Assembly: GCA_039619475.1 (NCBI GenBank)
Contig: CM077116.1
Coordinates: 198,485,117 to 198,549,116, forward strand
Direction: 5' to 3'
From: Icerya purchasi
Taxonomy: Eukaryota; Arthropoda; Insecta; Hemiptera; Monophlebidae
Length of the DNA: 64,000 nt
In this document: piece by piece, positions 1 to 64,000 of the stretch
Position numbering within the stretch: position 1 is the stretch's first letter
Layout: every line of letters starts with the position of its first letter
Position numbers and translations under genes: made by a program
The notes under the pieces: generated by a model
The model's input: the letters and a program-made list of their open reading frames with translations, nothing else
The model's database searches: none
What the model was told of the DNA's origin: nothing

Positions 1-258
1 CTTTCTGTGGCCAAGATGTTGCTCCCTCAACTCCTCCCATACAGTACGACTGTCCAGCATTATCACCTCACCGGCCCCCTTCAATTAATAACAAAACAGT
101 CATCAACATTCTTGAGAATTCCCTCAATGCTATTTTATCTGTAACACAATTTATCAGAACTAGTGGAATAAGCAGATATCTATAAAAACAAACTACTGTA
201 ATAGCCACAGCAGTTAAATACGGTACAGGATGTTGCTTTCACAAGAAAAAAAAAAAAA
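1..258 (+). mobile_element. LINE 3' end (C-terminal zinc motif, 3' UTR, polyA), cut by the window edge
   Basis: Reading the plus strand from base 3 gives an open frame to a stop near 175. It contains CGQD, then C-P-A-L about 16 residues on, and ends in ISRYL. This is the layout of the zinc-binding C-terminus that follows RNase H in I/Jockey-type LINEs (CxxC, then a C-P-x-L motif, then a helical tail). A short 3' UTR and an A-run at 244-257 follow. Only the last 60 or so residues lie in the window, so the family within the clade cannot be fixed. The frame is too short to tell whether the copy is intact. Confidence 0.65.
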
Positions 259-344
259 TATAATATCTGATCAATCCTTAATTATTGGAGAGCCTTATTT
301 GATTCAAACGTATATTCCTTCACACTCATTTCCCAAAACCACAA
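258..344. repeat. Short remnant of the 3-kb satellite
   Basis: The stretch with TATTTGATTCAAACGTATAT and CACACTCATTTCC matches the satellite at 42150-42200 (TATTTGATTCAGATGTATAT, then CACTCGCTTCC). It shows that the array already occupies the left edge of the window. Confidence 0.6.
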
Positions 345-680
345 TTTTTTTTTTTTTTTTAAATAACATATGGAGAACCCACAAGTCCGTACATTCTTAT
401 CACAGTTACAACGTTTATTTGTAATAAAGTTACAATCGATCATATACAATTAACCGCTTAACTAACAAATGTGTCACAAAACAAAGTAAAAACAAACGTA
501 ATATAATTTTCCACTAAAAACAACAGCATAACGCATAATTCAAAACCTAAACAAAACAAGGCAAAAAATACAATAGCAATTCGTATGAAAACCCAGTGCA
601 AGAAAAAAAAAATATATATATAATTAACTGGAAAAAGATAAAGAGAGAAAAAAAAAAAAAAATCATATATCAAACACTCC
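345..680 (-). mobile_element. PolyA-tailed unit T, diverged copy
   Basis: A T-run (345-360) is followed by TAAATAACATATGG, an ACCCACAAG motif and AACGTTTATTTGTAAT. The same order (polyT, TAAATAATTTG, CCCACAAG, TCGTTTATTC) occurs at 20799, 21073 and 51101. Read on the minus strand it is a short sequence ending in polyA, with no coding frame seen, so it is either a SINE-like unit or the 3' UTR of a LINE not otherwise present. The right boundary (about 600-680) is uncertain because two A-rich runs lie there. Confidence 0.45.
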
Positions 681-1530: not shown

Positions 1531-4284
1531 GGCCTAAGTCTAAATATAATCAAGTATATATGAATCATGAGATTTTCGTAATTACATTGGCAATAATGAA
1601 AGGGACATCCTTTATTTTTCTCTGAATGTTCATTGGATCAATCTTATCCCTTAATTAATGCAAGATCAGAGCAGTTTTTTATGAATAGCATCTAAGTTGA
1701 TGCATTGTTTTTATTTCTAATTGATTAGTGTGACATACAACAGATCGCGAACCTCGTGTTTAGATAAAAAGATTTAGACAAATTAACGTATGGAAACCCA
1801 ATCTTATTCCCTTTTTTTTATAGAAAAAAAAACAAAAAACGTAAGGAAAACAATAGGGTACATATGTAAAGTTCTATCTACTACTCACAAATATACATCT
1901 AATTTAACACACCAACTAGTGTGTCCATCAAATGTCCGGAAATATGTACATGCATTACTACATTGTAAACACTTTGTTTTGCTGATTCATGCTATGTTAC
2001 TTAACAAGTTGAAATTTTTTTGTGAATTGTAATATTCGGTAACCTGATTGTTGCAAATTACATGTTAAAACAGCATAAACGAATAATTTTATTAACATAT
2101 ATCAAATTTATTCTTCACTAATAATTTATAAAAATTTTATTTTTGTGAATTTCATAGTTGGTAAGTACGATTTCATGAAATTAATACATTTAGCTGTTAT
2201 CAACTTCAATAATTTAATTAGTATCATAGTAAATGTCATTACATCTCATTGACTAGTTCAAAAAAATCAGAAGGTGGTTTGTTTCTAATAAAATTTTCTG
2301 ATACAACTGAATACATTCTTATTAATTTATGATTATATTAAAATATTTAACAAGACCAGCTGAATCATAATATTATTGGAAACAATTCATTACCCCTTTC
2401 TCACTGGAGCTATCTTATAATTTGGCTGCAGTAAATGTGTATAAAATATTTCTTAAAAGGCGGCATGTGCTGACGTATTCCTTCTTGTTTAATTTGAAAA
2501 TCTTCTATTACAATGAAAGATGTGAAGTGATATAAATATGTAGTGCCCTGCAACTCGCGAATATGCATCCAATTCGACACTCTAACCGGTGTGTCCATCA
2601 GAAGTATAGCAATATATTCACGTATTACTACTATCTAAGCACTTCATATTCCTGCTTCATGCTCTAATTTTGAACTAGTTAAAAAATTTTTAAAATACTA
2701 TAATCTTGTAATTTGAATTGTTGAAAAGTACACTATTAATGTGTAACAATTTTTTTTTGATCACTAATTTGTATAATTTTATTTTTGTAAAATTCATAGG
2801 AAGTAAGTATGATTTCATGGAATTAACATATTTGGCCGTTAGCAAACTTATGTTTTACAATCACAAACTGCAGAAATCAACTGCCATATTCCACTTGTTA
2901 TTATATTGGAATCAATTTCTAAATCTAGTAGTATGTTCTGTGCTTAATGAATTTCATTTACATAACTTAGCACCTTCTAAATAAATACAAATATTGAAAG
3001 ATACATAATAAGTTCATCTCAAGAGAATAAAATGAAAACCAAACTACACAATACATGTTACAGTGTTACCATTACAAACATTTATGCTGCATGGTCAGGA
3101 ATCAGACCTTTTGTATAACTCTTTTATATGATCCAAACTCTCGCCTTGCACTTGTAGCAAACCCACAATTTCACATCAGGTAAATGTTGTGATCATGGTA
3201 CAGCTGCATTGCATGAAACGTGCCGATTAATGTCCAAAATCTTGATGGTATATTGATTCTTGTTTAACACTAACGATTAGAAATTTCAGCAGAAACGAAC
3301 CGCCTCCGTGTTATTGATCCGTTCAAAAAATATTTTCACTGTATTTAACATCTTAGTATTTCTGTTCATTCAGCAATAATGTTTCCCAGATATATTTAAG
3401 TTGACGGACATTTTGCATGACTACTTATACATGTATGTTCGATATCGATTATATTGTATTTCAAAATAGTAAATCCATAAAATTTAATTTTAATTTAATT
3501 AATATCCTAGAAAATTCCATTACACCTTTTTAACTTGATCAAAAAACCAGAAGTGTTTTTTTGTTATTGGTCAAGAAAACTTGCTTATGTGACTGAATAC
3601 ATTTTTATTAATTCATGATTATCCATAAATATTTTACTGGACCAGTTGAATCGCTATATAATTGGAAACAATTTATTACCTTTTCCTTACTAGAACTATC
3701 TTATCACATGACTGTGGTAAACGTGTATAAAATATTTCATAAACAGTGGCATGTGTGGACATGTTATGCATTCATTCTTCTCACTTCATTTGAAAATATT
3801 CTATTACTATGAAATTCACAGAAGGTAATTATTACACAGGTAGGTAGAAAATCCAGGATATATTACACGATATTCTTTCAATTAATTACATACTAATATT
3901 AAATTTCCTGCACTTTGCGCAGCTTAGCTTACATAGCTATGCAAATTTTAAACTTATTCAAATATTGAAAAATATGTGATTGATCAAGATATTCCTTATA
4001 ATGACATTAGATAGATGGAAATACTATATTACACATAGCATTATTACTGATTATATATATTTAAACAACGTGTTCAAATTATCCAAGTATTGTATAATGT
4101 AATATCATAATATCAAGGATTAAATTTACACATTTTTCATTTATATACAGTATCCATGCTATCTTCAATTCTGAATACCTTTAGAAATATAAATCAAATC
4201 AATACCGTTAGAATTGAATCAAGAGAGTAGCTAATTCATCATCTCATTCACTTTTATCATTTCTGTATTACATCAATTCTTGTC
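1530..4284. repeat. 3-kb satellite array, first segment
   Basis: Ordered blocks are visible: TATATGAATCATGAGATTTT (1556), the CACCAACTAGTGTGTCCATC-type block (1909), the GTAAGTACG block (2161), and a second round with the ACCGGTGTGTCCATC block (2584), the GTAAGTATG block (2801), CCATTACAAACATTTATGC (3069), CCATTACACC (3515) and a GATTATATATATTTAAAC block (4050). The same blocks recur in the same order downstream. The first GTAAGTA copy is only about 640 bp from the second, so the left unit has an internal deletion. Short open frames here show no conservation and are taken as chance. Confidence 0.85.
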
Positions 4285-4560
4285 CAATACTCTTCTTCTT
4301 CTTCATTCTGCTGTCTCCGTCCGAAGTCGGGCGATCATCATGGTTATTGTTGATTTTGATTGTACGGCCTATTGTAGTTCGGCTGTGGTACGTCCATACC
4401 ACCCCCTCACATCTTCTAGCCAGGACATTTTTCTTCTACCTGGTCTTCTCTTTCCTTCAATTTCATCCTCTCGTACTAACTGCAGAAGATGGTATTTTTC
4501 CAGATGCCTGGAGATATGACCAAAATATTCGAGTTTTCAGGCTTGTATAATTTTTAGCAT
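4285..4560 (-). mobile_element. LINE family C (RTE-like), C-terminal fragment
   Basis: The minus strand encodes KLEYFGHISRH, EKYHLLQLVREDEIEGKRRP and GRRKMSWLEDVRGWYG in one run, then a stop and IARLRTE. This is the very characteristic C-terminus of RTE-type endonuclease-reverse transcriptases found widely in insects (GHVxRH...GKRxxGRRxxSWL). At the low-coordinate (3') end lies a CTTCTTCTT run, that is (GAA)n on the element strand, in keeping with RTE elements ending in short tandem repeats rather than plain polyA. It sits inside the satellite block between CAATTCTTGTCCAATACTC and TTCAAAATTTCAGTCAG. It is truncated and has an in-frame stop. Confidence 0.75.
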
Positions 4561-7548
4561 CGTACTTCAAAATTTCAGTCAGAATAAACTGCACATATGT
4601 TACTAGCTTTTCAGTAAAGTGTTTTTTACACATACAAGTTCATAGTACTTCTATTTTTACACCACGTTTATTTTTTATAATTTTGTATTTAGGGAAAAAC
4701 GGTATTTGTTGGATTAAATTTTTCACAGCAGATATGTAGCATATAAAAAAAATTAATCATACTTATATCAGTAGGTTAAAATATTCTATATATATGCCAC
4801 TAATTTTAATAAACAGTATTTAATTTAACATACATAAGTTTCCTGAAGAAAAAAGAGGGCTATTGAAATATTAGATTAATTGTGGTTGTAGGTTTATTTG
4901 TATTGTGAAAAACCACTGAGCTCAGTTAAGTAATACGTCATAAAAATTTTAAGTTCTATTCAGTATATTAGACACACACTTTTATTACTAGTCAAAGAAT
5001 CTTGCTATAATAACTTGATTTCTTTCAGTTCAGTTACAGCTTACTATTAGTGAACATAATGCCTTCAAACATAACTCACAGCTTTGGGTATCCTTTTAGT
5101 TTATTTTTTGTTAAATAGGTTTATTCCATCTAAGAGTAAATTTCATAAAGAATTATATATGTTTCATAAATTTTCTACAATTTTCCCAGACACCTGAAAT
5201 TAAAAAACATTTGACTAGTAGGTATTAGCTAAAGAAACTAATCAAAATTGTATTCCTCTGCTCTATTTTCCTGAAACCACAGATATAATCGGGTTTATGT
5301 AAATCATGATATCTTTATAATTAAATTGACAATAATGAAAATGACAATATTGATTTCTCTCTGAATGTTCATTTGATCAGTTTTATGCTGCAATTTGATT
5401 GTGAGCAGCATCTGAGTTTCTGCATTGTTTTTATTTCTATCTGATTAATGCAAGTTGCAAGCGATCAGGAATCACTTGTTTACATGATAGGATTTGGTCA
5501 AATTAACATATAGTAGGCATTGGAATATGTATGTAAAGTGCTAAGAATTTGTGGCACCCTACTACTCACAAATATGCGTCCAACGCAACACACTGGCCAG
5601 TGTGTCCATCACAAGTATGACAATATATTCATACATTACTGTTTAGCAAGCACTTTATTTTGCTGCTTCAAGCAATAATTTTTAACAAGTTGGGCAATTT
5701 TTGAAATGTAATATTTCTGTGATTTGATTGTTGCAAAACTAAATTTTATTACAGCATAAATAAATCGTTTTTATTAATTGTATAAACAATTTATCTTTGA
5801 TTACTAATTCAGATAATTTTATTTTTATGAAATTCATAGGTAGTAAGTATGATTTCATGAAATTTATACATTTAGCTGTTGGTACCCTTCTGCTTTACAA
5901 TCACCTAATGTTATATTGGAATTTATTTTAAAATTTAGTAGTATATTCTGTGCTTAATGAACTTCATTTACATAACATGGCATCTTCTAAATAAACACAA
6001 ATAGTTAAAGCGACATAATAAGTCTCAATTTTGTCTCAGCAAGCCTGAACTTAATCCAAACTTTATGTGCACATTACAGTATTACCATTACAAACATTTA
6101 ACCTGCATGTTCAGAGAGCAAACCTTTTGTATAATTCATTTGCATAATGGAAATTATCACTTTGCCCTTGCAGCATACCCACAATTTCGTATCATACATA
6201 TAAATATTGTGATCATGGTGAACCTGCATTGCATGACGCGTGCAGACTAACTTTTTAAAATTCTGATGGTATATTGATTTCTGTTTAATATTAGCTATTA
6301 ACTATTTCACCCCCTCTATATTAATGATGCATTCTAGAAATGTTTTCGCAGCATTTAACATAATTTTATTTTTGTTCATTCAGCGAAAATGTTTCGCTGT
6401 GACATTTAATTAGAGGGATATTTTCTTTGACTACATAAACATTTGATAATTATTCTATTGTATTAGAAAAAGTTTAAGAATTAAAATTGAAATATAATTT
6501 AATTAGTATCCGAGTAAATTCCATTACACCTTATTGACTAGATCAAACTAAATCTGAATTGTGTCCGTTTTATAGTTTAATAAAACTTGCTAATGCAACT
6601 GAATACATTTCTATTAACATATGAACTATCCCTAAGAATTTGATTAGACCACAAGGAACATAATATTATTGGAAACGATTCATTACACCCCCCCTCCAGT
6701 ACTCTCTTATCATCTGGCTGCAGTAAGTGTGTACAATAATTTTCTTAAAAGGTGGCATGTGTTGGTGTGTTATAAATTCCTTCTCCTTGTTTAATTTGCA
6801 AATGTTCTATTACAATGAAATTCACACAAGGTAATTATTATACAGGTGGACAGAAAATCCAGTATATCCAAATCGATATCTTGGCAATTAATTACATCAT
6901 AATATTAAATTTTCGGCACTTTGTTGATCATAGATGAAATAGCTATGCTATTTTTAAAATTATTCAATCATTGAGAAATATGTGATTGATCCAGGTTTTC
7001 ATATGATGGCTTTAATTAAACAGAAATACTATATTACACATTGCAAATTTACAATAATATAAATATTAGAGCTGTGTATACAAATTAGCCCATTGCAGTA
7101 TAATGTAATATCATATCAGGAATTAAAATTTTCACAGGATTCATGTACATGTTTTATCCATGATATACACAATTCTGATCATTTTTGGAACTTGGAGACA
7201 TATCAATATCGTTATAATTGTATTAAACAAGTATCTAAGTTATCATCTTATTCACATTTACAATTCCTGTATTAGATAAATTCCTGCTTAATACTCCTTA
7301 AAAATTTGAGTCACAGTATACTGCACTTCTATTACTAGCATATCAATAAAGTGTTTTTTACACATACAAGTTTGTGGTACTTCTATTTTTTCAACAACTT
7401 TATTTTTGATCATTTGGTATTTAGAGAAAAATTGTATCCTTAGATTAAACAATTTACAATAGAATTGTACCATATACAAAAGATGATCATATTTACATTT
7501 GTAGGTTAAAACATTCTTTATGTACGCCATTAATTCTAATAAAAAGTA
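4560..7548. repeat. 3-kb satellite array, second segment
   Basis: A complete round of blocks: TTTCAGTCAGAATAAACTGC (4575), GTTAAGTAATACG region (4925), CAGATATAATCGGGTTTATG (5279), ACTGGCCAGTGTGTCCATC (5591), GTAAGTATGATTTCATG (5841), CCATTACAAACATTTAACC (6085), AGTAAATTCCATTACACC (6511), ATGTAATATCATATCAGG (7101) and a repeat of the CAG-TCA-AT block (7310). The distance 2798 to 5838 between equivalent positions gives a unit of about 3.04 kb. Confidence 0.85.
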
Positions 7549-9582
7549 ATTAATTAGGATTCCGTAATAACTTACGAAATCCTAATAAGATGGTACACAA
7601 ATGACAAAAATATCAAATAAAAATCAATAACTCACGAACAGTTTGACTTATAAACTTTAAATTTGGAACATGAATCACAATTAAAATTCTCTTTAAAACG
7701 ATCTATAACTTAAAGATTACCGATTGCCCTGGGCGGCAAAAAACAGCAAAAACCGTTAAGAATATATAATATGGTACATAAAGCGACCTCAAAAATCACT
7801 TAAAAAATCATAACTCATCTCACGATAAACCTATAAAGCTGAAATTAAAAATATAAACTAAAATGCAGGAGTACTTTCATAAAATCAAAAAAATATGCTA
7901 CATAAGTTATGTAAAGTTGCCGAAAAGTTCAAAAAAGTGTAAAAAGTGACGTGTCCCCCCTCCAGCGTCGCGAGTATTACAGCTTAAAATTTTAAATGCG
8001 ATTTAAAATACGCGCATCCCCGTATATTTCTCTAGTTTGGAACATCTGGCCTTCCAACTTTAAACCTGGACCTTCGGGGCGCCGAAAGCTCGAAATTTTG
8101 TAAAAAAATATCTTTTTTTCCCGGACATGTGATATATCGTTGGAAAGATTGCTGTCTGGAACGAAACCGTATTTCATATCCTTAACAAAACTTTCCAAGT
8201 TGCCGTAAAGTTCAAAAAATCACGAAAAATGACGTGTCTCCCCCCTCCTAGCGGCGCGAATATTATAGCTAAAAATTTCGAACACGGTTTAATATATGCG
8301 ACTCCACGTATATTTCTCTAGTTTGGAACATCGAAATTTCCAGCTTTAAAATTAGACTCTCAGGGCGCTAAAAGCTGGAAGTTTAAAAAAAAAAAAATGT
8401 CCCGGGCTTGCGATAAATTATTAGAAAGATCGCTATTTGTAGGGAACGAACCCGTATTTCATTTTCTTAACAAAACTTTCAAAGCTGCTGAAAAGTTCAA
8501 AAAAGCGCGAGCTCTAATTTGTAGCCCCTCTTCCCGACGTGAGTATTATAGCTATACATTTGGAACATGATATAAAATATACGGATCCACGTATATTTGT
8601 CTGGTTTGAAACATCCGGCTCTCCGGCTTTAGAATGAGATCTCCGAGGCGCCGAAAGCTCAAAATTTTGGAAAAAAATATTGTTTTTTCCAAGCACGTGA
8701 TATATTGCTGGAAAAACCGCTATTTGTCCGGAACGAAACAGTATTTCATTTCCTTAACGAAACTTTCAAAGTTGCCATAAAGTTCAAAAAAGCGCGAAAT
8801 ATGACATTTCCCCCCGCTTAGCGATGCGAATATTAAAACTGAAAATTTTAAACGTGGTTAAAAAAATGCGCATCCCCGTATACTTCTCTAGTTTGGATCA
8901 TCCGGATTTTCAACTTGAAAACTGGACCTTCGGGGCACCGAAAGCTTGAAATTTTGGAAAAAATATTTTTTTTCCCGGGCATGTGATATATCATTTGAAA
9001 GATTGCTATTTGTCGGGAACGAAACCGTATTTCGTTTTCTTAACCAAACTTTCAAATTTGCCGAAAAGTTCAAAAAGCGCGAGAACTAATATGTATCTCC
9101 CTGTTTGCATCGCGAATATATTGTAGCTATTAATTTCGAATGGGGTTGAAAATATTCTCATTCTGGCATGTTTGAGTAGTTTATTTAAAATTTTGTGTAT
9201 ATATCTAAATAAATTTTATTTAAAAATCGTAATCTAATAAATAGTGACAAACGAGGAATGTGGTTTAATTAATAGTATTCAAATATAACTATATAGAAGT
9301 TCGGAAAACAAACAAGTACAATTACAAATTTTTAAATATTTATTGATAATTAATCCTTCCAAAAATCTAGGACTAAATAGCGTTTATTTATTAGAATTTA
9401 TTTTTTTTTGCAGTACAATATGATGACACTGCGTGATGTGTGAAAAAGAACTGGACTAAAAATATCTGTTTTGGAATTATTGTTGTTTTGTATTTAGTAT
9501 TATGTAAATGAAAATTATGGTTATCTTTAACTTAACATACGGAATCCTCAGCGCATGAAACCTCATGCTTGACTGAACTTGT
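7549..9582 (-). mobile_element. Helentron-like (Helitron-class) non-autonomous element
   Basis: Satellite sequence is interrupted between AATAAAAAGTAATT (7548) and TTTTACATATATACATTTTC (9583). Read on the minus strand, the right end has AGGATTCCGTA and the left end has a hairpin, GGATTTCGTAA-gtta-TTACGGAATCC (11 pairs, one wobble), followed at once by TAA and then T. A 3' hairpin next to a CTAA end, a short inverted repeat between the 5' end and that hairpin, and a central tandem repeat are the features described for Helentron-derived elements (HINE/DINE type). No Rep/helicase frame is present, so it could only move in trans. A related plus-strand copy lies at about 19958-22195. The exact 5' end is uncertain. 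Confidence 0.5.
7870..9150. repeat. 286-bp tandem repeat, about 4.4 copies
   Basis: The landmark CCCTCCAGCGTCGCGAGTAT recurs as variants at about 7957, 8243, 8524, 8811 and 9098, giving steps of 281-287 bp. Other landmarks keep the same phase: CCCGTATATTTCTCTAGTTT (about 8020, 8306, 8593, 8876), GGCGCCGAAAGCT (8079 and variants) and AAAGTTCAAAAAA-type (7925, 8209, 8495, 8781, 9066). Copies differ at many sites, so the array is not young. Three minus-strand frames of 60-68 codons share words such as NLSNDIS and EKK-FF; they arise from the repeat itself and are not evidence for a gene. Confidence 0.9.
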
Positions 9583-11367
9583 TTTACATATATACATTTT
9601 CTGAAGAAAAAAAGGAAATTGAATATGCAAATTTTAGATGATTTATTGAAACTGGTTTATTTGTATTGCGGAAAACTACTGAATTCAGTTAAAAAATCGA
9701 CTTAAAAATTATAAGCTGCATTCAGTATTTTAGAAACATGCTTTTATTGACAGTTAATGAAAGTCGTTATAATAACTTGATATATTTTAATGTACTCATG
9801 ATTGCTATTAAGTATTCCTTCAGTTCAGGTGCAGCTAACTACCAATGAACACAATGTATAATGCTTCAAACATAATTCACTGCTTTAGGATTCATTTTAA
9901 TTCAATTCTTGTTGAACAGTGTTATTCCATGTAAGAGAAAAAAAATTTATAAAGAATTATATAGGCTACTCCAATTTTCTAGAATTTTCCCAGACACCTG
10001 AGATTAAAATAACATTTGACTAGTATAAATATTAACTGGAGAAGCTTATTTGAGTCAAAAGTGTATTACTCTACCCTCTCTTCCTGAAATCACAGATATA
10101 ATTGGGTATATGTAAATCATGAGATCCTCATAATTAGATTGACAATAAGGAAAGCGACATTCCTCATTTCTCTCTGAATATTCATTTGATCAATTTCATC
10201 CAGCAATTAGATGGTGAGTAGCATCTGAGTTGCTGTATAGTTTTTATTTCTCTGAGATTAAAGTTGACTTGCAAGTGGTCGGGAACCACTTGTTTACATT
10301 ACAGAATTTAGAGAAATTAACATATAGTAAACGTTAAAATATATATGTAAAAAATTTGACATAACCCACTACTCACCAATATGCAACCAATGCAACACAC
10401 TAACAGGTGTGCCCATCACAATTATGACAATATATCCATGTATTACTGTTTCCTCAGCACTCTATTTTGCAGTTTCGAACTACAATTTTTAACAAAAATT
10501 GGAAAAATTTGAAATGTAATATTCTTCTAGTTTCATTGTTACGAATATACACTGTAATACGACATAAACAAATACTTTTTATAAATGTTTAAAAAATTTA
10601 TTCTTGATTACTAATTGACATAATTATATTTTTATTAAATTTGTAGATGGTAAGTATGATTTCATGGACTTAATACATTTAGCTGTTAACAACCTTATAC
10701 TTTATGATCACAAACTGCAGGCAGTCAACAGCTATGTTCCAGCTGATATTATATTGGAATCAATTTCTAAATTTAGTAGTGTATTATATGCTTAATGAAC
10801 TTCATTTACATAACTTGGCACCTTCTAAATAAATACAAATATAGAAAGATACATAATTCTCAACAGGCTAAAAGGAAAACCAAACTATGTATAGTGCACC
10901 TTACAGTATTACAATTACAAACATTTATCCTGCATGTTCGGAGACAGGCTTTTACATAACTGTCTCACATAACGCAAACTCTCGCCTTGAACTTGTGTCA
11001 TACCCACAAATTCGCATATGACAAATTTTGTGATCATGGTGAAGCTGTCCAAAATTCTAATGGTATGTTTAATACTAACAATTAGAAATTTCAGTAGAAA
11101 CAAACCGCCTGCATATTATTGATCCGCTCAAAAAATATTTCCACTGTATTATATATCATTGTAGTTTTGTACATTCCACAAAATTGTTTCACAGAGAGGT
11201 TTAATTTAAGGGACATTTTCTTTGACTACATAAATATTTGAAAATTATTATATTGTATTTGAAAAATTTTAAGTATTAACATTGCATTATAATTTAATTA
11301 ATATTCTAAAAAACATCACTGCACTTTATTGGCTAGATTAAACAGAATCAAAATTATGTTTTTTTTA
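9583..11367. repeat. 3-kb satellite array, third segment
   Basis: Blocks in order: TATATACATTTTCTGAAG (9589), AGTATTTTAGAAACATGC (9724), CACAGATATAATTGGG (10091), CACTAACAGGTGTGCCCATC (10398), GTAAGTATGATTTCATGG (10649), the CAAACATTTATCCTGC block (10917) and TGCACTTTATTGGCTAG (11319). The segment stops abruptly at 11367, where Helitron-like DNA begins. The satellite continues at 22970 in the expected next block. Confidence 0.85.
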
Positions 11368-11874
11368 TCTTTTTATATGTATATAGAAATGATTTGCCTT
11401 ATGTGGGTCTCGCTTCTCCTACAATTCGCGAAAAACGTGTATCTCAAGAACGGCTCGACCGATTTTGTTAATTTTTTTTTCTAAAATATTGGCTAAGGTT
11501 CAAATTAAGTTTTTACAAAAAAAAATTGAAGCGCGGAAATTACAAAATTTGCCTAGGGTTTTCAGTACGATACAAATCAGGGTTGGTGGCGCGATCTTTC
11601 GACGACGATCTAATACATAATTTGTTTTGCCTTTAGTATTATTTTTTGATTTTCGCTCCGGTAGTGTCTTTGCATACGAGGCGGTGGTGTCAATACTGGT
11701 AGTGCAAAGCAATAAAACATATTGTAATGTGTACATTACATGCATAATAAATATAATAAACAAATTAGTAATTAACATAGAATTCAAGGCGAGCATGAGT
11801 GTAAATGTGTGTGTAGTGTGGCGAAGGATCGGGGTTGATGATGCCTGGAGTGATGTTACGTCACGTCTGACGTA

Positions 11875-12135
11875 ATGGAAATAGTGCTGGAGGAAACGCC
11901 GTCCGACGGTGGAGGGATCTTCGATTTGGCTTGGAGATCGGAAATACGTTCACGAACGATCAGTCGTTCAATTCAGATTTTGGAGTCGGAAAAAGACGGT
12001 TTAAATAAAGGCGGAGTGGGAGTCCGCGCCGGTGGCCTACGATATCGGCCACACGCTTTCCGTGGTTGTCATATTCGGCCGTATAAAATAATAATTATGT
12101 TATCGCGTTTATTAAAAAAAATATCAATGAATTAA
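11875..12135 (+). CDS. Unrecognised 86-codon open frame
   Basis: It starts MEIVLEETPSDGGG and continues with EIRSRTISRSIQILESEKDG before a less convincing tail. It sits in a CpG-containing stretch unlike the surrounding satellite, between ACGTCACGTCTGACGTAATGG and AATAAAGGCGGAGTGGG. No domain was recognised. It could be a captured exon, an LTR fragment or chance. Confidence that it is a real gene is low. Confidence 0.15.
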   Translation: MEIVLEETPSDGGGIFDLAWRSEIRSRTISRSIQILESEKDGLNKGGVGVRAGGLRYRPHAFRGCHIRPYKIIIMLSRLLKKISMN

Positions 12136-12159
12136 TTTAGTTAAAATAAAACGAAAGAA

Positions 12160-12477: not shown

Positions 12478-12515
<38 letters not shown>

Positions 12516-54300: not shown

Positions 54301-55260
54301 GGTTGCAGGAGAACGACGAGGGGGAGAAGATAGAGAAAGAGCAGACCTGATAGAATGGGAAAAGAAATTATAGAGAGAAATGGGATCCCAATGAATCTGT
54401 GGATCAGGAAGTGATGAATCAACAGAAGAGCGGAAAAGAGTCCAATTAGTTTTGCTGAGATTCCATCGAGGAGAATGGAGATGCCTGGGATAAGTTGGAG
54501 AAGGAAAAATATCAGTAGTAATTATTATGGGAACATGGTCACTGCCGAAAGAACCCGAAAGGGTTCTCCAGGTAAAGTTAAGACCAATTGAAGGGGAAGA
54601 AAGAGTTAGATCAAGAGAACTGGAGACAAAAGCATTCCTAAAATAGGTTGGGGAAAGATCATTAAGGAGCACCAAGTTATCAGAAAGGATAGTATTCTCA
54701 AGGATGGAACCATTGCTATTGTAGGATGTGCAGCCCCACATAGGGGAATGAGCATTCCAATCGCCGCCGATAATAAACGGTTGCGGGATAGATGAGAAAA
54801 ATGTAGAAAGGGGAAGTGACGAAGATCGTAAGTAGGAGGAACATAAATCGAAACAACGTTAATAGGACGCATAGAAGGAGGATTGATGGAGATATGAACG
54901 ATATTAGGAATATTAGGAGTAGAAGGAAGGTTGAGAGAAATCTCGTGAGAACGGAATGGAATGTCATTTCTAACGAGGATCGCAGAACCAGCATAGCCAT
55001 CATCGCGATCGCTTCTGATTACCTTGAAGCCTCTAATGTTAAAATCCACGCCTGACCGAAGCCACGTTTCCGAGATGAGAGCAACTTGGATATTATGAAG
55101 ATCCAACAAACCCTCCAATGAATTTTTGTTGGCTCTGAGACTACGACAATTCCATTGTAGCAGATTAAACGCAGCCGGCATTGTAGAGCTAAAGAGGGAT
55201 TAGGAAAAAAAGACGTAAGAGAATGGAGTAGGAAGCAATAGGAGAGCACAGAGGAGGGTA
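51372..55260 (-). mobile_element. LINE family A, near-complete ORF2 with polyA
   Basis: A T-run (51372-51383) marks the 3' end. The 3' UTR includes GGGTAAAGGTCCTCGGTTGA. The whole ORF2 is present; ORF1 is absent, so the copy is truncated just upstream of ORF2 (about 55190-55260). This is the reference copy used here for family A fragments at 0.7, 22.4, 40.1, 45.1, 46.8 and 55.5 kb. Confidence 0.85.
51439..55181 (-). pseudogene. LINE ORF2: endonuclease, RT, RNase H; one frameshift
   Basis: ATG 55181 opens MPAAFNLLQWNCRSLRANK, with LISETWL (endonuclease Glu). Near 54780-54830 the frame slips; the continuation from 54741 is open for 1,100 codons. Endonuclease ends with SGSFGSDHVPII. RT: PTPGLDGIPYLALKNL, LRPISLASCIRKLFEGMLNK, motif A SFIDVSCAFDNVD, motif B GLPQGSSLSPTLFN, motif C SLFFADDILLFYSS. 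Then FRYLGIFLDSRLTFSEHIKY and SKLDYCSFIYACASKSRL. RNase H has IFTDGSKGPDGVGASF, CSIFTAELMAIL, IISDSMSALQ and WVPGHSGISGNEKADSLGRV, all catalytic acids intact. CCPLH...CDTDHVFFECSAL is the zinc motif, and the protein ends IADRLTV. RT and RNase H look functional; only the endonuclease frameshift and missing ORF1 inactivate it. Confidence 0.9.
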
Positions 55261-55455
55261 TAAATGCAAAGATGTACCTTATTTATAATTATCCTCTTTG
55301 TTTTTTTCCTTCGTCTATTCTTTTCTCAATCTTTGCACCACGCTATCAACCAAATTTTAATTTTGTCTTTCCATATTTTCAAATTGTCTTCGTCTTTAAT
55401 TTCCTTTGGTATTAATCTAAAGGTATGACAGCATTAATGATTATAAAGGAAAAAT
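55261..55455 (-). mobile_element. LINE family D, C-terminal end
   Basis: The minus strand reads FSFIIINAVIPL then IPKEIKDEDNLKIWKDKIK and WLIAWCKD with a stop, followed by AAAGATTGAGAAAAG and an A-rich 3' UTR. It matches the 21.3-21.5 kb fragment over codons and UTR (CAAAGA.TGAGAAA). No polyA separates it from the family A element at 55260, and on the other side it abuts family A RNase H sequence. Confidence 0.55.
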
Positions 55456-56300
55456 ATTAGAAATGGAACATTCGAATGAAGCTAACCAAGGGAGACGGAA
55501 AAGAAAGGATGCTGTGAGCACTGTAGGGCGTAGGGAGGCCAAGACACACAAGACCGGAATACAGTATCGCGCGTTCTGAAGAAATGGAATGACATTCAAG
55601 CAAAATGTGGTTCGCATCACAAACGAAATTTGCTTCCGACGGATCAAACGGACAAAGAGGAGACTGAGTAATGGAGAAACGGAAGAGCGAAGCAGGAAGC
55701 AAGCTGTGGTTTAACCGAAGTCTAATTATGGATGAAATAGTTGATCGCCTTATGTTGGGGGAATTAAGAAACCACGGAAAACCAAGAGGAATGGGTTGTA
55801 TGGATAAGTAAAAGGAAGCAGGATTGGAAAAAGAAGAAGGGTAGAGATCAGACCAACAGTAGCGGTGGCAACGAGAGGAAAGAGGAAGAAGACTTTGAGC
55901 TGGGAAATGCCTAATAAAGCGACCGTCTAAAGCAGCTGAACGTGCCAACGAGTCGACTAACTCGTTGCCCGAAATTCCGCAATGACTAGGAATCCACAAT
56001 AGATCAATACGGACAGAGCGGGAATGAAATAGATGTGAAATTAAGGAACGTATGTGAAGCACGATAGGATCAGCGGATGGTTTAGGAAAGGGAGTAACAA
56101 TGGCTTGTTAAACGCCTTTTGAACCAGAAGATAAGAGAACCTTGGATATATTGTTAGTGGAGGCTATAGAAAATATTGCCTGTAAGATCCCAATAGATTC
56201 AGCTAGGAATATGGAAGAGAACGAGGGGAGTTTGAACGACCCAGAATAGCCGAAATCTGGCAGAGTAAAAGCCGTAAAGCTGACTTTAAGCCATCTGTAA
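55456..56300 (-). mobile_element. LINE family A fragment, RNase H to zinc motif
   Basis: The minus strand begins at FTDGLKSAF (about 56297), continues through FSSIFLAES (RNase H Glu) with a stop at GV-stop-QAIV (56110), and then a 201-codon frame 56062-55457 with IDLLWIPSHCGISGNELVDSLARSA, IIRLRLNHSLLPAS and CDANHILLECHSI. The last few residues of the family (ISDR end) are replaced by family D sequence. The third RNase H acid is not evident because SSGSKG stands where SDS is expected. Confidence 0.75.
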
Positions 56301-58550
56301 ATAAACTACGTTTAGGTTACTTGATTTTTATTAAAGTGTTTTCAACACATACCAGTTCATTGCATTTCTATTTTTTTGACAAATTTGTTTTTTTATGATG
56401 TATTTTAAGAAAAATTATAACTGTTAGATAAAATGTTTCACAACAGGATTGTAGCATATACAAAAAGTTATTCATACTTATATCCGTAGGCTAAAACCTT
56501 CTTTGTATACCGCTAATTTTATTTTGTTTTTATGAAATTCACAGGCGGTAAGTATGATTTCATGAATTTGATACATTTAGCTGTTAGCAACCTTATATTT
56601 TAACATCACAAACTACAGCAGTAAACCACTTTATTCAAACTGATATTATATTGGAATCGAGTTCTCCTAGTATTAGTATATTCTGTGTTAACCGAACATT
56701 ATTTATATTCTTAAAAGATGACATGCGCTGACTTTTATAAACTGCTTCTTCATGTTTAATTTGAAAATCTTTTATTACAATGAAATTGATAATACGTAAT
56801 TCTTATTATATAGGTGGGCAGAAAATCCAGTATTTTTAAACTGTGATTTTTGCAATTAATTACATTATAATATTATTCTTTCTGCGTTTTGCAGGTCTTG
56901 GTTTACATAACTATGCGATTTTTAAACTTATTCAAGCATTGAAACACATGTGATTAATCCAGTTTTTGTTATAATGGCTTTAATTAAATGGAAATACTAT
57001 ATCACATAATGCAGTATTACTGATTATAAATATTTAAACAATGTATTCAAATTAGCCCACTAGTGAATAATGTAATATAATATCAGAGATTCAAATATGC
57101 AAATGGTTTATGCATATTTAATCTCCACACTATTTTCAATTTGGGAAATTTTAGAAATTGAAATCAAATCAATATCGTTTGAATTATTTCAAGAAAGCAG
57201 CAAAGTAATTACCTCATTACCTTTTGCAATTCCTATATTCCTCAATTCCTGTTTAATACTCCTTCCCAAAAATTTTAGTCAGAATTAACTGCATTTATAT
57301 TACTAGCTTTTCAATAGAGTGTTTTCAATACATATAAGTTCATAATATTTCTATTTCTTGAATGAATTTATTTTTTATCATTTGGTATTTTGAGATAAAT
57401 TGTATCTTTTAGATTAAACGTTTCACAGTAGAAATGTGGCATATACAAAAAATTAAATAACTTCATCTATGGGCTAAAATATTCTTTATATACACTACTA
57501 ATTTGAGTAAACACTTTATTTTTATATATATAAATTTTCTAAACAACAAAATATAATTGGGTAGGAAAATATTAAATTAATTACGGTTAAAGGTTTATGT
57601 GTATTGTGGAAAACCACTGAGCTCAGTATAGTAAAACGACTTAATAATTTTAAGTTCCATTAAGTATTCTAGACACATTCTTCTATTACTAGTCAACGAA
57701 TCTTGCCAATATAACTTGACATATCTTAATTTATGATTGCTATTACATATTCCATCAGTTCAGTTACAGCTAACTATTAGTGAACACAATTTATTATGTC
57801 TTCAAACATAATTCGCAATTAGGGAATTCTTTTTAATTTCAATTTTTTAAATAAGGTTATTCCATGTAAGAATCAATTTCATAAAGACTTTATGTTACTA
57901 TAGTTTTCTACATTATCTAAGAAGCCTGAAATTTAAGTAACATTTGACTAATAGCTATCAAATGGAGAAGCTAATTTGAATCAAAAGTGTATTTCTCTGC
58001 ACTCCCTTCCTGAACCCAATATATAATTAGGTATATATGAATCATGAGATTTTCAAAATTTGATTGACAATATTGAAAGGGACATCCTTTATTTATTTCT
58101 CAATGTTCATTTGGTCAATTTAATCCTGTAATTACTGCAATATTACAGCAGTTAATTGTGAGCAGCGAGAATTACAAAGGACCGAGAAATTCTTGTCTAG
58201 ATGAAAGGATTTAGGGAAATTAACATATGGTAAACCTTAGGAGTGCTATAAATACGAACTAATCAGTGTGTCCAACATCAGTATGCTAATATATTCATCC
58301 ATTACTGCTTTGTAAGAACTTTATTTTGTTGCTTCAAGCAATAATTTTTAATAAGTTGCAATATATTTGAAATGTTACATTCTTGTAATCTCAATGTTGC
58401 AAATTACAGTCTAGTAAAGCATAAACAAATAGGTTTTTTAATGTATAAAAAATGTATTCTTGGTAACTAATTCTTATAAATTTATTTTTGTGAAATTCAT
58501 AGCTGGTAAGTACGATTTCATGGAATTAATAGGTTTAGCTCTTAGCAAAA
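56301..58550. repeat. 3-kb satellite array, twelfth segment
   Basis: Starts AACTACGTTTAGGTTACTTG, then jumps at about 56520 to TTTATGAAATTCACAGGCGG with GTAAGTATG (56551), then at about 56705 to TTCTTAAAAGATGACATGCG. The order then is regular: GCAGTATTACTGATTATAAA (57011), TTTTAGTCAGAATTAACTGC (57273), GTTACAGCTAACTATTAGTG (57762), the GTGTCCAACATCAG block (58268) and GTAAGTACGATTTCATGG (58507). Two internal deletions are implied. Confidence 0.85.
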
Positions 58551-58768
58551 TCCACTAAAAAATAAATACTTAAAATATACTCATGAATTTTCTTTGATTA
58601 AAACACGAGAATAAAAATAAAATGTGAAAAAAGCTGTTTTTTGGCACCCTAGGGCCTAAAAAAATATTTGGGACCTAAGACCTGGTTCGCCCTTTATTTT
58701 GAGCCTCCAAAATCACATTTTTATCCTAAGAGAGGAAAAAAAAATTGAGGGTATTTCACCCCACTTAA
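58551..58768. other. Foreign insert that hosts the piggyBac element
   Basis: After TTTAGCTCTTAGC the satellite gives way to AAAATCCACTAAAAAATAAA and, later, GGCACCCTAGGGCCTAAAAA. GAGGGTATTTCACCCCACTTAA precedes the piggyBac end and TTAATGGAGGATACCCTTTG follows it (61730-61749), so the host sequence could fold with GGGTAT against ATACCC. Satellite resumes at about 61750. The insert is about 235 bp without piggyBac and has no coding content. Confidence 0.5.
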
Positions 58769-59057
58769 CCCTTGTGTTCGCACCCAACTTTACCTACGTT
58801 GTTACGCACCCGGGTATCCGGGTACCCACCTCTTATTTTTACGATCCTAAAATCGCTTTTTAAACGTTTATTTCTATAAATAGACGCCACTATTTATAAA
58901 AAAAGCCAGTTCTCACACTTTTGGCTGACTTAGCATCTTTTGCCGGAGAATGTTGAGCATGCACGCTGTCCAAGGAAGCCTGAAAAATAAAAACGATGCC
59001 TGGGAAAAATTATTAAAAAACGTTAACAGGAAATCATAATAATCATCACTATCAATA

Positions 59058-59255
59058 CTATTGCATATCTAACTTTTCTAACTCGGCCAGTGACATAAAA
59101 AATGTCGCAGCTTCCAAATCCGTCTTACTATATAGTCTGGTAGGACCTTTCAACTCAGTTCCCTTTTTATAGTTAAAAAAATGTAGGGGTATGGAAGGGT
59201 CGGCATAGGGTATAGTGAATGTTTCGTGTTTGAAGACTTTGTGGCGACCAACCAC
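59058..59255 (-). CDS. Unrecognised 65+ codon frame, possible captured terminal exon
   Basis: The minus strand encodes GRHKVFKHETFTIPYADPSI, then LHFFNYKKGTELKGPTRLYS and FFMSLAELEKLDMQ before a stop. The composition is like a folded soluble protein and unlike the satellite or other transposon frames. Upstream, GATATTAG at about 59277 could be a splice acceptor; the frame stays open back to it. It lies in the 5' non-coding part of the piggyBac, antisense to the transposase. I do not recognise the family. A host 3' exon picked up by the transposon fits, but a chance frame cannot be excluded. Confidence 0.35.
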   Translation of the reverse strand: MVGRHKVFKHETFTIPYADPSIPLHFFNYKKGTELKGPTRLYSKTDLEAATFFMSLAELEKLDMQ

Positions 59256-59517
59256 GTGTGTTGTCTAATATCACTTAGAGGCATTACTTCCCATTTTAGA
59301 ATATTTTGAGAATAATGCGATTATCATTTGGCAATACTGACAATACAGATGAATGGAACCTGGCAACAATGGCAGGCTGAATGTGTGCATTGTTTAAGCT
59401 TGGATTTCAAGAGCTAAACAGTAGTGTTTTGAAGTTCTATAAGTGAAAACGTAATTCTTGTTACTAAAAAATAAATAAAGCTTAGTTGAACACCGAAAAA
59501 TCCACAACTTTGAAGCT

Positions 59518-61397
59518 ATGGAACAACTATCGAGAGCAGAATTTGCAAGGTAAATTGTTATAGTGTTTTATTTATAAATTTCGATTTCATCCTCTGATTC
59601 TATTGAACAAGTTAGTAATGCACGAATTAAATCTCAGGTTGAATACAGCACAGAAAGAAGTTTATTTGAAAACGATATTAGGAGAAAGCAATATAGATTC
59701 CGATGTGCAATCTGACAGTGAAGACGATGACTGGTTACAAGATGAAGTTTTGAACAAGCATCCTGCTTCTGATGGCAATGAATCTGGCGAAGAAGATGAG
59801 AATACTGACCAAGAGGGAGAAACTGAAAGCAGTGAGAGGTTCAAACGACAACTGTAGCATGAACAGGTTGCTTAGAAAATGCTTGGATAGCTAAAGACAA
59901 AACTGTATGGAATAAATCGCCGCCTTTTCAACATCAAACTGCACGTCACAATATAGTGCGTCAGCGAAGTGGTCCTCACAGAAGCACAGAGACTCTTTCA
60001 AGAAGATATTTACATTGCATGTGATAGATATTATAATTCGTCATACGAATAAGAAAGTCTTGTCAGTCTACGCTGAATTCAATGCGGCGAATCCAAATTC
60101 CCAAAGAGAATGGAAGCCCGTTACTATGCAAGAAATGTACTCGTTCATAGCTGTTTTGATTTGCTTTGGTGCGAATAATGCAAATACTGATCATACAAGT
60201 GATATGTGGCACGGAACTTCATATCCCTTCTATAGAGCGACGATGGGAATTAACAGATTTCGGAACATTATGCGTTTTATTAGATTTGACAATGCTAATA
60301 CACGCCAACAACGTATCAAGGAAGACAAAGCAGCTGCAATCCGTGATCTTTGGACAATACTGAACGCAAATTTATCTCACCTGTACAAGCCGACTGAGAA
60401 TGTAACAATTGATGAACAACTTTATTCTTTCCATGGTCGCACAAAATTTACGCAGTACATTCCTTCTAAGACGGCTAAATATGGCATTAAGATTTGGTGG
60501 ATTTGCGATGCTAAAAATGCTTATCCATTGCGCGGTATCATTTATGTATCAAGGAAAACGAGTCGTAAAAGAGCTTGCAGCTCCGTACCGAGGCAGTGGT
60601 AGAAATATTACCATGGATAATTTTTTTACAACGTTACCTCTTGCCAAACACATGCTTTCATGGAATTTAACTATCGTTGATACTTTGAGACCGAATAAAT
60701 CTTATGTTCCAAGTGTGATGGCTCCACATAAGTCGAGAGAAGTATACTCTACTGAATTTGCTTTCAATGAGAGGGTAAAGATGTGCTCATACATGACAAA
60801 GAAAATAAAACTGTAATTATATTGTCGACTATGCATTCCGACACTGCTGTAAATGATGACAGTAAAAAACCTCACGTTCTAACATACTACAGTATAAAGC
60901 TGGCATTGATGCACCATGGATCAAATGTGCACTCGATACACTAGACAACGCCGTACTCTGAGATGGCCGGTAACTATGTTTTTCAACATGCTGCATATTA
61001 GTTCATTCGCGTCCTATTTGATTTGTTACGAAAACAACAAGATGCTTCCGAGCAGAACAAATCAACGACGACTATTCATGCGCCAATTGAGTGAAGAACT
61101 CGCAAAACCAGAAATTGATAATCGGTCGCAAACGTTCGAATAATGCGAAATTACAGCACAAAAATCGCCATTGAAAGTGTGATCGGGCAGGCATTAAACC
61201 CCGTTGAAATCACTCCAGGTCCTGCTAATAAACGAGATAAGTTAGGGTGGATCAAAGTCATTGGCTCCTGTCATATTTGCTGCAAAGCAACAATAATGAG
61301 CAGGAGAAAAACACGAAAGGCATGCTGCGATTGCAACAAACCTGTTTGCAATGAACATGCTACAATATTCGAGAAATATCATAAATGCAGGGGCTAA
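59518..61397 (+). pseudogene. piggyBac transposase, multiply frameshifted
   Basis: A start MEQLSRAEFAR (59518) is followed by GTAAAT, possibly an intron. Then comes an acidic region (SEDDDWLQDEVLN, SGEEDENTDQEGET; stop at 59857), TVWNKSPPFQHQTARHN in a new frame, and 60015-60602 with WKPVTMQEMYSFIAVLICFG and FRNIMRFIRFDN. The catalytic triad positions are visible: VTIDEQLYSFHGRTKF (60411), IWWICDAKNAY (60506) and, after a frameshift, ITMDNFFTTLPLAKHML (about 60615). Later pieces are DQMCTRYTRQRRTLRWPVTM (60916-61143) and a C-terminal cysteine-rich domain CHICC ... CCDCNKPVCNEH ending at 61397. At least four frame changes and several stops make it non-functional. Confidence 0.85.
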
Positions 61398-61749
61398 TTA
61401 ATTTTCCACCCTTTTTTTTTTCTATTCCATACCATCCAAAAACATATTCGATGTATAAAGATTAAATAAAACTATCCCAAATCAATAATCTAGTCAAAAA
61501 GTTTTTTTTTTTTTTAGGTGGGTACCCGGGTACCCAGGTGCGTCCGTGATGTATTTATACTTTACACTCGATTTTTTCCTTGTAATTTTCGTTATTTTTT
61601 ATTCCAAACAAATTACCTGCTTACAATAGTTAAATAAAGACGATCCGGAGATGTTTGCCGAAATTCCTACTTTTGACCAAGTTACATTCAAAAATGCACC
61701 GTGTGGGTACCCGGGTGCGAACATAGGGGTTAATGGAGGATACCCTTTG

Positions 61750-64000
61750 TTTTGTATTTGATAGTATTTTAAGTAGATTGTATCTCTTAGATTAAATGTG
61801 TCATAACAGAAATATGTCATATACAAATAAGTATTCATACTACTATCAGTAGGCTAAAACGTTCTTCATACGCTACTAATTTTAATAAGCAGTATATAAC
61901 ATGAAGTTTATTAATTTTCTGAAAAAAAAAAAGAAATTGACTATGGAAATTATGGAAATTGGTTTATTTGTGTTGTGGAAAACCACTAAACTCAGTTAAC
62001 GAGATAGATTCAAAAATTATAAGCCGTATTCTCTATTTTAAAAACATGCTTTCATCATCAATAAAAGAAAGTCTCCAGTAAAACTTGATATATCCTGAAG
62101 TACTTATGATTGCATTTAAATATTCCTTAACTTCAGATACAGTTAACTATTAGTGAACATAGTGTACTACGCCTTCAAACATAATTTGCTTTTTGGGGAT
62201 TCCCTTTAATATAATTTTTGTTAAATAAGGTTATTCCATTCGTAAAGAATTTTATATGTAACTTCAGTTTTGCTACAATTACTAACAGACATGAAATTAA
62301 AATAACATCTGGCTAATAACTATTAACTGGAGAAGCTATTCGAATCGAAAGTGCGTCCCTCTGCACTTCTCATCACAAATGATGGATATAATCATGTATA
62401 TATGAATCGCAAGATTTTCATAACTAGACTGACAATAATAAAGGGGACATTCTTTGTTTCTCTCGCAATGTTCATTTGGTCAATTTTATTCTGCAATTAT
62501 ATCACAGCAGTTTATTGTTAGTAGCATCTGAGTAGCAGCATTGTTTTTATTTCTACTTGATTAGTGTGACTTACAAGTGACCGGGAACTTCTTGTTTAGA
62601 TGACAGGATTTAAAGAAATTAACATATTTTAAGCATCAGGAGTACTATTAATTTGTAGCACCCTACTACCCACAAATATGCATCCAATGCAGCACACCAA
62701 TCAGTGTGTCCATGACTAGTATGGCAATTTATTCATGCATTATCGCCTTGAAAGCTCTTTATTTTGCTGCTTCAAGTTATAATCTTTAAAAAGTTGCATA
62801 ATTCTTGAAATTTTATATTCTTGTAATTTGATTTTGCGAATTATATTCTAGTGCAGCATAAAGAACAGTTGCTATTAATTTATAACAAATTTATTCTTGA
62901 TGACTAATTTATGTTATTTTACTTATATGAATTTCATAGGTGGTAAGTATGATTTCATGGAATTGATACATTTAGCTGTTAGCGACCTTATGTTTTAATA
63001 ACACAAACTACAGCAACAAACAGCTATATTCTCGCTGATATTATATGGGAATCAATTTCTACTACTATTATTATATTCTGTGTTAAATGAACTTTATTTA
63101 TATAACTTAGAACCTACTAAGTAAACACCGATATTGAAAGGTATATATCTCTCAATTTGATCTCAATAGGATAAAATGAAAACCAAACTACATAATGCAC
63201 TTTGAATTGTTACTATTACAAACGTTTATCAGGAACGTTCATATATAAGACCTTTTGAATAATTCATTCACATAATCCAAACGCTCGTCTTGCACTTGTA
63301 GCATAGCCACAAATTCACACCAGATAACTGTTGTGATCATGGTATATCTGCATTGCATGAAGCGTGCAGACAAACTTTTAAAATTTCTTAAAAGATAGCA
63401 TATGTTAACATTTTATAGCTTCTCCTTCATGTTTAATTTGAAAATCTTCTATTAAAATGAAATTCACAGGACGTAATTATTATTATGTAGGTGGGAAGAA
63501 AATCCAGTATTTTTAAACTGAGATTTTTGCAATTAATTACATAAAAATAATAAAATTTCTGCATTATGCGGGTCTAGGCTTACATAGTTATGCAATTTTT
63601 AAATTTACTCAAGCATCCAGATTTTTCTTACAATAGCTTTAATTAAATGGAAATACTATATTACACATTGCAGAAATACTGATTATAAATATTTAAACTA
63701 GGTATGTATTCAAATCAGTCCACTACTGCATAATGAAATATCATAACATCAGGGATTAAAATACACACATGATTTGTGCATATCTAATCTGCACGGTTTT
63801 TCAATTCTGAACATTTTTAGAAATTGAATTTCTATATTATTCAATTCCTGTTTGATACTTCAATTGCAGTCAGAATAAACTGCAATTATGTTATTAGCTT
63901 TTCAACAAAGTGTTTTCAATACATATAAGTTCATAATATTTCTATTTCTTGAATGAATTTATTTTTCATCATTTGGTATTTTGAGATAAATTGTATCTTT
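61750..64000. repeat. 3-kb satellite array, last segment
   Basis: Blocks in order: TTGTATTTGATAGTATTTTAAG (61752), GTTAACGAGATAG (61996), ATGGATATAATCATG (62382), CACCAATCAGTGTGTCCATG (62696), GTAAGTATGATTTCATGG (62944), the TACTATTACAAACGTTTATC block (63211), then a jump at about 63380 to TTTCTTAAAAGATAGCATATG, CTGCATAATGAAATATC (63727) and GCAGTCAGAATAAACTGC (63866) at the window end. The array therefore extends beyond the window. Confidence 0.85.

What the first reader, a model, noticed from the sequence alone, without database searches (positions are those of the whole stretch)
258..64000. The whole window is one decayed ~3-kb-unit satellite, invaded by transposons
Seen: at least eight different blocks recur in fixed order across 64 kb, for example the GTAAGTATG block at about 2155, 2798, 5838, 10644, 24987, 39048, 42741, 43425, 47301, 56540, 58498 and 62935. 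The undisturbed spacing is about 3.04 kb. After every transposon the satellite resumes in the correct phase. Such a long non-coding unit is much larger than typical insect satellites (from general knowledge). Inference: this is a megasatellite, perhaps pericentromeric or from a sex chromosome, and it may be undescribed.
Basis: partly seen in the sequence, partly recalled or inferred. Interest (0 to 1): 0.75.

Follow-up and report, generated by a model that had tools for sequence, protein, structure and literature searches.

The report
Decayed 2.7-kb satellite full of transposons
About a third of this stretch of what is probably insect DNA is the worn-down remains of a long tandem repeat whose 2.7-kb unit shows no sign of coding for anything; jumping genes have since broken it up, and repeats of this kind are already known.

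Summary
The window holds 22 aligned blocks of one repeat, all on the + strand and head to tail, covering 21,970 of 64,000 bases; the reversed window gives no hit at E 0.001.

Phase resumes within 60 bp after 9 of 12 insertions, not after all, and it also jumps inside the satellite with no transposon.

Copies differ by K2P 0.295 on average; neighbours are no more alike. I found no coding signal and no site constraint shared by the two internal copies; one conservation scan is suggestive. I read it as a neutrally decaying relic.

Insect satellites with 3.6-kb units are published. Host, genomic extent and chromosomal position are untested: the host-genome search did not complete.

The parts
1543..2204 (+). 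satellite block, unit positions 717-1321
   Evidence: E 4.8e-141
2210..2517 (+). satellite block, unit 1930-2254
2518..4292 (+). satellite block, unit 964-2731
4293..4564 (.). 272-bp insertion between two units; makes the 3.04-kb spacing; kind of element not identified
4565..7557 (+). reference unit (2732 bp, 4565-7296) running on into the start of the next unit: a head-to-tail join
5781..6394 (+). B1, first member of the internal duplication (unit 1216-1829)
6768..7404 (+). B2, second member of the internal duplication (unit 2203-2840, running into the next unit)
7558..9581 (.). insertion carrying a 286-bp tandem repeat (7913-9140); unit phase resumes
9582..11375 (+). satellite block, unit 259-2015
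11376..22967 (.). 11.6-kb composite insertion with an RNase H fragment and a Mutator-like transposase; phase resumes
22968..25941 (+). two satellite blocks spanning more than one unit (unit 2006 through the unit end to 2217), with a 50-bp perfect tandem duplication at 24752-24851
25942..26601 (.). 660-bp insertion, TG...CA ends, looks like a solo LTR; phase resumes
   Evidence: LTR reading is inference
26602..26887 (+). satellite block, unit 2216-2502
26888..32551 (-). non-LTR retrotransposon with long open frames (endonuclease, RT, RNase H in two overlapping frames), 10-bp target duplication ATAAACATTT
32552..32683 (+). satellite block, unit 2479-2614
32684..38117 (.). composite insertion with a broken reverse transcriptase; phase not kept (413 unit bases missing)
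   Evidence: RVT_1 in 1 of 4 open frames scanned there; 32886-33833 had none
38118..39712 (+). satellite block, unit 295-1899
39737..40133 (+). satellite block, unit 1-443
40134..41945 (+). probable truncated non-LTR element; phase resumes
   Evidence: DNA similarity to 52100-52744; RNase H below cut-off (22.7 against 25.8 bits) in 1 of 3 open frames
41946..43335 (+). satellite block, unit 455-1823
43339..44084 (+). satellite block, unit 1183-1898; recent tandem duplicate of 42655-43335 (92% identical)
44085..46292 (-). truncated non-LTR element (RNase H); phase resumes within 57 bp
46293..46759 (+). satellite block, unit 1841-2311
46949..48771 (+). two satellite blocks, unit 894-2060 and 1980-2628
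48772..50958 (+). broken non-LTR element (reverse transcriptase in two pieces) with perfect 13-bp target duplication; phase resumes exactly
50959..51090 (+). satellite block, unit 2629 through the unit end to 27
51091..56299 (-). non-LTR retrotransposon with an 1139-aa open frame, plus a further fragment; phase resumes
56300..58548 (+). three satellite blocks, unit 18-242, 1251-1407, and 2177 through the unit end to 1320
58549..61744 (+). insertion with broken piggyBac-type transposase; phase not kept
61745..63998 (+). two satellite blocks, unit 101-1693 and 2173 through the unit end to 142, running to the end of the window

Best explanation
A non-coding segment of about 2.7 kb, which already contained an older duplication of a 0.6-kb piece, was tandemly amplified long ago. 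Homogenisation then largely stopped. The copies drifted apart neutrally, lost and gained pieces by local recombination, and took in transposons, some apparently recent. It does nothing that I can detect now; it is a dead, long-unit satellite array. Shown: tandem order, one strand, divergence, absence of a coding signal and of constraint shared by B1 and B2, insertions at continuous phase. Inferred: amplification by unequal exchange, and loss of homogenisation. Inferred with moderate support: the founder had a long history of CpG loss, most simply germline methylation, which did not continue strongly in the array.
For: 22 of 22 blocks on one strand, reading through the unit end in five places; reversed window 0 hits at E 0.001. 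Mean K2P 0.295 over 94 pairs with 200 or more shared columns, no correlation with distance (Mantel p 0.20). No 3-base periodicity: 2 of 175 overlapping windows at p<0.05, none at p<0.01; indels 57 of 309 in multiples of three. Longest open frame of the consensus 88 aa, reached by 62 of 200 Markov sequences. No Pfam match above cut-off for 10 of the 17 open frames listed in the reference copy. B1 and B2 score 121 against a null maximum of 68, yet columns identical between B1 and B2 are no less variable among copies (p 0.32; column correlation -0.01), as neutral decay predicts. Phase resumes across 9 of 12 insertions; two show clear target duplications.
Against: Variation along the unit is not fully even. 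The 200-bp stretch at unit 1231 is quieter than in permutations (p 0.004) and unit 822-1022 noisier (p 0.002); the other eight window sizes give p 0.02 to 0.11 for the quiet side, and alignment error may explain the noisy part. The block resembles a splice acceptor followed by a donor (CTAAT, T-rich, AG, three bases, GTAAG in all 10 rows shown; a near-duplicate row and one short row were dropped beforehand). One copy has a 114-aa open frame against 83 on average in shuffles. One pair of copies is only 8% apart, so duplication has not wholly stopped. Only about eight unit equivalents are seen, and abundance elsewhere is unknown.
Confidence: 0.85

Rival explanations
1. The unit is a tandemly duplicated gene, or gene part with introns, now pseudogenes; the recurring blocks are exons and splice sites.
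For: CTAAT, a T-rich tract, AG and GTAAG recur in all 10 rows shown, and a short open stretch follows them in some copies (read by eye). The founder is CpG-depleted with TpG and CpA excess, as expected of methylated gene bodies.
Against: No codon periodicity, no length bias of indels, consensus open frames no longer than chance, no Pfam match above cut-off, and no site constraint shared by B1 and B2. A gene dead since amplification would leave little trace, so a pseudogene origin is not wholly excluded.
Confidence: 0.12
2. The array is functional DNA under weak selection (a bound or transcribed satellite), with the GTAAG block as its conserved box.
For: The 200-bp stretch at unit 1231 has less variation than 500 permutations predict (p 0.004), and the homologous stretch of B2 ranks second.
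Against: The other eight window sizes are marginal (p 0.02 to 0.11). Column-level variation of B1 and B2 is uncorrelated. Heavy fragmentation and insertions are tolerated.
Confidence: 0.05
3. The copies are a dispersed mobile element inserted many times rather than a tandem array.
For: Copies are broken and separated by kilobases of other DNA.
Against: One orientation in 22 of 22 blocks, arbitrary start points, continuous reading through the unit end, and phase kept across 9 of 12 insertions.
Confidence: 0.02

Closest known systems
ApiSat02-3661, Acyrthosiphon pisum satellite (PMC12241859, passages seen)
   Same: A+T-rich insect satellite with a unit of several kilobases
   Different: A catalogued family of that species; its sequence was not compared here; this array is heavily decayed
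CameSat120-3664 and other long satellites of Chrysolina americana (PMC11049206, passages seen)
   Same: Kilobase-long tandem unit in an insect; family divergences from 1.77% to 26.18% are reported there
DXZ4-type 3-kb macrosatellites of mammals (PMC3218863 and PMC3081327, search listing and start of abstracts only)
   Same: Unit of about 3 kb, not obviously coding
   Different: DXZ4 is described as an uninterrupted, polymorphic array; this one is interrupted and old
Transposon-invaded, diverged flanks of human alpha satellite (recalled, no call)
   Same: Old tandem copies that escaped homogenisation and collected insertions
   Different: Monomers of 171 bp next to a live centromere; no live core is seen here

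Membership tests
satellite DNA (tandem, non-coding) | head-to-tail copies in one orientation | tested here: met
   22 of 22 blocks + strand; reading through the unit end in five places
satellite DNA (tandem, non-coding) | non-coding | tested here: met
   no coding signal (10 of 17 open frames of one copy scanned)
satellite DNA (tandem, non-coding) | high copy number or long arrays in the genome | not testable with these tools
   about 8 unit equivalents in the window; host-genome search unanswered in 16 of 16 attempts (first, last)
satellite DNA (tandem, non-coding) | homogenised copies (concerted evolution) | tested here: not met
   mean K2P 0.295, neighbours no more alike; one recent pair at 8%. 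Expected of a relic, and why I call it dead
higher-order repeat | unit made of related smaller monomers throughout | tested here: not met
   of ten segment pairs only B1-B2 exceeds its shuffles in direct orientation; in reverse-complement orientation two pairs (A2-B1 58.3 against 57.4, A2-B2 61.6 against 60.3) slightly exceed the maxima of the direct-orientation shuffles
tandem gene or pseudogene cluster | coding signal or protein homology | tested here: not met
pericentromeric or sex-chromosome satellite | location | not testable with these tools
   no map, reads or host genome
transposable element family | dispersed copies in both orientations with fixed ends | tested here: not met
   one orientation, arbitrary ends, continuous phase

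The most novel reading that the evidence does not exclude
The array is a molecular fossil of a change in methylation. A germline-methylated segment, perhaps transcribed and possibly intronic (splice-like block), was copied into a tandem array that then largely escaped methylation. Each copy independently regained CpG, so the array records both the founder's state and its loss.
Probability: 0.25. Interest if true: 0.5.

Novelty: new member of a known kind. Interest (0 to 1): 0.3.

Why it matters
It adds a very old, neutrally decaying example to the known long-unit satellites of insects. Many diverged copies of one founder next to transposon insertions make a useful clock for satellite death and for neutral mutation. 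The contrast in CpG between founder, copies and transposons gives a direct way to ask whether satellites can be seeded from methylated DNA and then lose methylation.

Tried and rejected
Exon hypothesis: the GTAAGTATG block looked like a splice donor after an acceptor, so I tested the unit as a gene cluster; codon periodicity, indel lengths, open frames and Pfam gave nothing above cut-off (four sub-cut-off Pfam matches, best E 0.023).

Functional box: conservation scans gave mixed p-values, and the B1-B2 column test was negative, so I do not claim constraint. Rows c43311 (near-duplicate) and c56640 (short) were dropped before the counts.

Higher-order repeat throughout the unit: in direct orientation only B1 and B2 are related.

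CpG loss after amplification: rejected as the main cause. In simulations (8 replicates a model) a CpG-normal founder with strong CpG decay misses either the copy level (0.32 at x10; observed 0.50) or the consensus level (0.57 at x6; observed 0.18), and predicts more sites with both TG and CA (0.29-0.31; observed 0.12). A depleted founder with no to three-fold CpG excess fits the CpG levels (0.19/0.54 and 0.17/0.45) but predicts fewer such sites (0.03 and 0.07); at six-fold those fit better (0.10) but the levels do not (0.09/0.33). The fit is therefore imperfect. In the real data the share of such sites (17 of 146) equals that of the GpC control (26 of 213), and CpG in copies is 196 against 227 (s.d. 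13) expected, so a mild excess loss remains.

Host identification: retrotransposon searches gave at most 34% and 43% identity among the 120 listed hits each (of 179 and 174; the 43% covers 43% of the query). The piggyBac fragment is 76% identical to an ant protein over 78% of its length, and 70% to one from Hydra. Insect is an inference from these, no closer. One viral-contig scan with a satellite motif: 0 matches. Rfam: 0 matches at gathering thresholds. Paper search: 0 papers.

Target duplications: 2 of 12 insertions stand out by alignment score (p 0.003 and 0.017 against 300 random pairs, not corrected for 12 tests).

The projection to unit coordinates printed is wrong for blocks that wrap; I use that call's window coordinates and E-values only.
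Full report
Observation. Self-comparison of the window gives 167 direct and 8 inverted repeat pairs, some of them from transposons. A unit taken from 4565-7296 (2732 bp) and turned into a profile finds 22 blocks, 22 of 22 on the + strand, covering 21,970 of 64,000 bases. The reversed window gives no hit at E 0.001, and 12 insertions searched apart give none at E 1. Tandem Repeats Finder did not report the array; its longest period was 500. The satellite is A+T-rich (28% G+C, against 38% in the rest of the window). All 12 listed positions of the GTAAGTATG block are real to within 8 bp: 9 exact and 3 with one or two mismatches.

Unit length. Copies read through the unit end without extra sequence at 4565-7557, 22968-24801, 50959-51090, 56708-58548 and 63381-63998. 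The 3.04-kb spacing comes from 4293-4564, a 272-bp insertion between two units. The undisturbed period is therefore about 2.73 kb.

Phase. Of 12 interruptions of 150 bp or more, phase resumes within 60 bp in 9 and does not at 32684-38117, 46760-46948 and 58549-61744. Several phase jumps have no insert or only a few bases between blocks. The pair 42655-43335 and 43339-44013 is 92% identical, and a 50-bp piece at 24752-24851 is perfectly doubled, so local rearrangement continued after the array had aged.

Age and mode of decay. Divergence from the majority sequence lies between 11% and 18% in 22 of 24 segments; the other two, 8.8% and 20.3%, have only 136 and 69 columns. Mean K2P between copies is 0.295 over 94 pairs, and separation does not predict divergence (Spearman 0.12; 0.10 without the recent pair, Mantel p 0.20). 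This fits one old spread of copies followed by independent drift. I give no date because the host's mutation rate is unknown.

Coding tests. Of 175 overlapping windows, 2 show 3-base periodicity at p<0.05 and none at p<0.01; 57 of 309 indels are multiples of three. The longest open frame in the consensus is 88 aa, and 62 of 200 Markov sequences reach that; among ten long copy segments the longest is 114 aa, against a shuffled mean of 83. Ten open frames from the reference copy (of 17 of at least 45 aa) have no Pfam match above cut-off; the best E is 0.023. Rfam has no match in the window at its gathering thresholds.

Internal duplication. A profile of unit 2130-2880 matches the B1 part of several copies (best E 1.2e-9 at 2886-3381). 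Consensus B1 against B2 scores 121, null maximum 68; none of the other nine segment pairs exceeds its null maximum in direct orientation, though two reverse-complement scores exceed it by about one point. 562 aligned columns are 70% identical. This is an old internal duplication, not a full higher-order repeat.

Constraint. Conservation scans gave p 0.004 for one 200-bp stretch and 0.02 to 0.11 for the other eight window sizes. Columns identical between B1 and B2 are no less variable among copies than the rest (p 0.32), and column variation does not correlate between B1 and B2. I read the unit as neutral, with the 200-bp stretch as the main doubt.

CpG. The consensus has 10 CpG against 50.6 expected, observed/expected 0.20, with TpG 1.30 and CpA 1.40. 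In the copies together it is 0.51 (0.31 to 0.82 in single blocks), and in the non-satellite DNA 1.03 (0.72 to 1.56 in single stretches). CpG in the copies (196) is close to what context-free mutation would produce from the consensus (227, s.d. 13). Simulation favours a depleted founder with no to three-fold CpG excess over a CpG-normal founder with later decay, but no model tried fits all three measures. Simplest reading: the founder had been exposed to CpG loss, usually caused by methylation, and the array has been much less so. Which DNA is methylated in insects varies: the abstract seen for PMC8203789 speaks of little sign of methylation in holometabolous and high levels in hemimetabolous insects, and the title of PMC2747282 of methylated genes and repeats in a stick insect. 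The host is unknown and its background CpG could not be measured, so this stays an inference.

Insertions. They include non-LTR elements with endonuclease, reverse transcriptase and RNase H domains, a Mutator-like transposase and a piggyBac-type transposase. Of the ten further open frames scanned, three have a reverse transcriptase above cut-off, one an RNase H below it, and six nothing. Two insertions have clear target duplications, 13 bp at 48765-48777/50952-50964 and 10 bp at 26879-26888/32560-32569. The element at 26888-32551 and the one with the 1139-aa frame at 51439-54858 look young from their open frames; others are fragments. The insertions at 4293-4564, 7558-9581, 25942-26601 and 46760-46948 were not identified by any domain.

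Relation to the literature. Published insect satellites have units up to 3,661 bp (PMC12241859, passages) and 3,664 bp (PMC11049206, passages), the second paper citing up to 4,228. Searches for 'megasatellite' with insect (10 papers), macrosatellites with Drosophila (12 of 40 listed), ancient or degenerate arrays (9 papers) and long satellites of insects (11 papers and 15 of 39 listed) gave no paper that I recognised from its listing as this array. The sequence itself could not be compared with published satellites, so I make no claim that the family is undescribed.

Limits. Extent, abundance, chromosomal place and transcription are untested.

Noticed in passing
window 7913-9140: A 286-bp unit repeated 4.3 times (72-74% matches) inside the insertion at 7558-9581, which contains GGATTCCGTA/TACGGAATCC-like inverted ends; nearby stretches match 20122-20274 and 22007-22194 in inverted orientation.
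   Followed up: partly
window 51439-55199, minus strand: A non-LTR retrotransposon with one open frame of 1139 aa; top listed relative 33% identical.
   Followed up: partly
window 20782-21294 and 51091-51200: Similar tail sequences (GGGTCCCACAAG...CCCGTCTGTGGGTT) in two places; at 20782 it is tandemly doubled (94-95% alike).
   Followed up: no
window 25942-26601: 660-bp insertion with TG...CA ends, possibly a solo LTR, CpG observed/expected 1.51.
   Followed up: no
window 11376-22967: CpG observed/expected is 1.4 over 11.6 kb, higher than in most other insertions.
   Followed up: no
window 56708 and 63381: Two copies jump into the unit at almost the same point (2177 and 2173) from different left partners (1407 and 1693); a shared junction or a recombination hot spot.
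   Followed up: no
unit 129-280, window about 4694-4845 in the reference copy: The consensus matches its own reverse complement here (160 columns, 67.5% identity, E 9.9e-7): a decayed palindrome in the unit.
   Followed up: no
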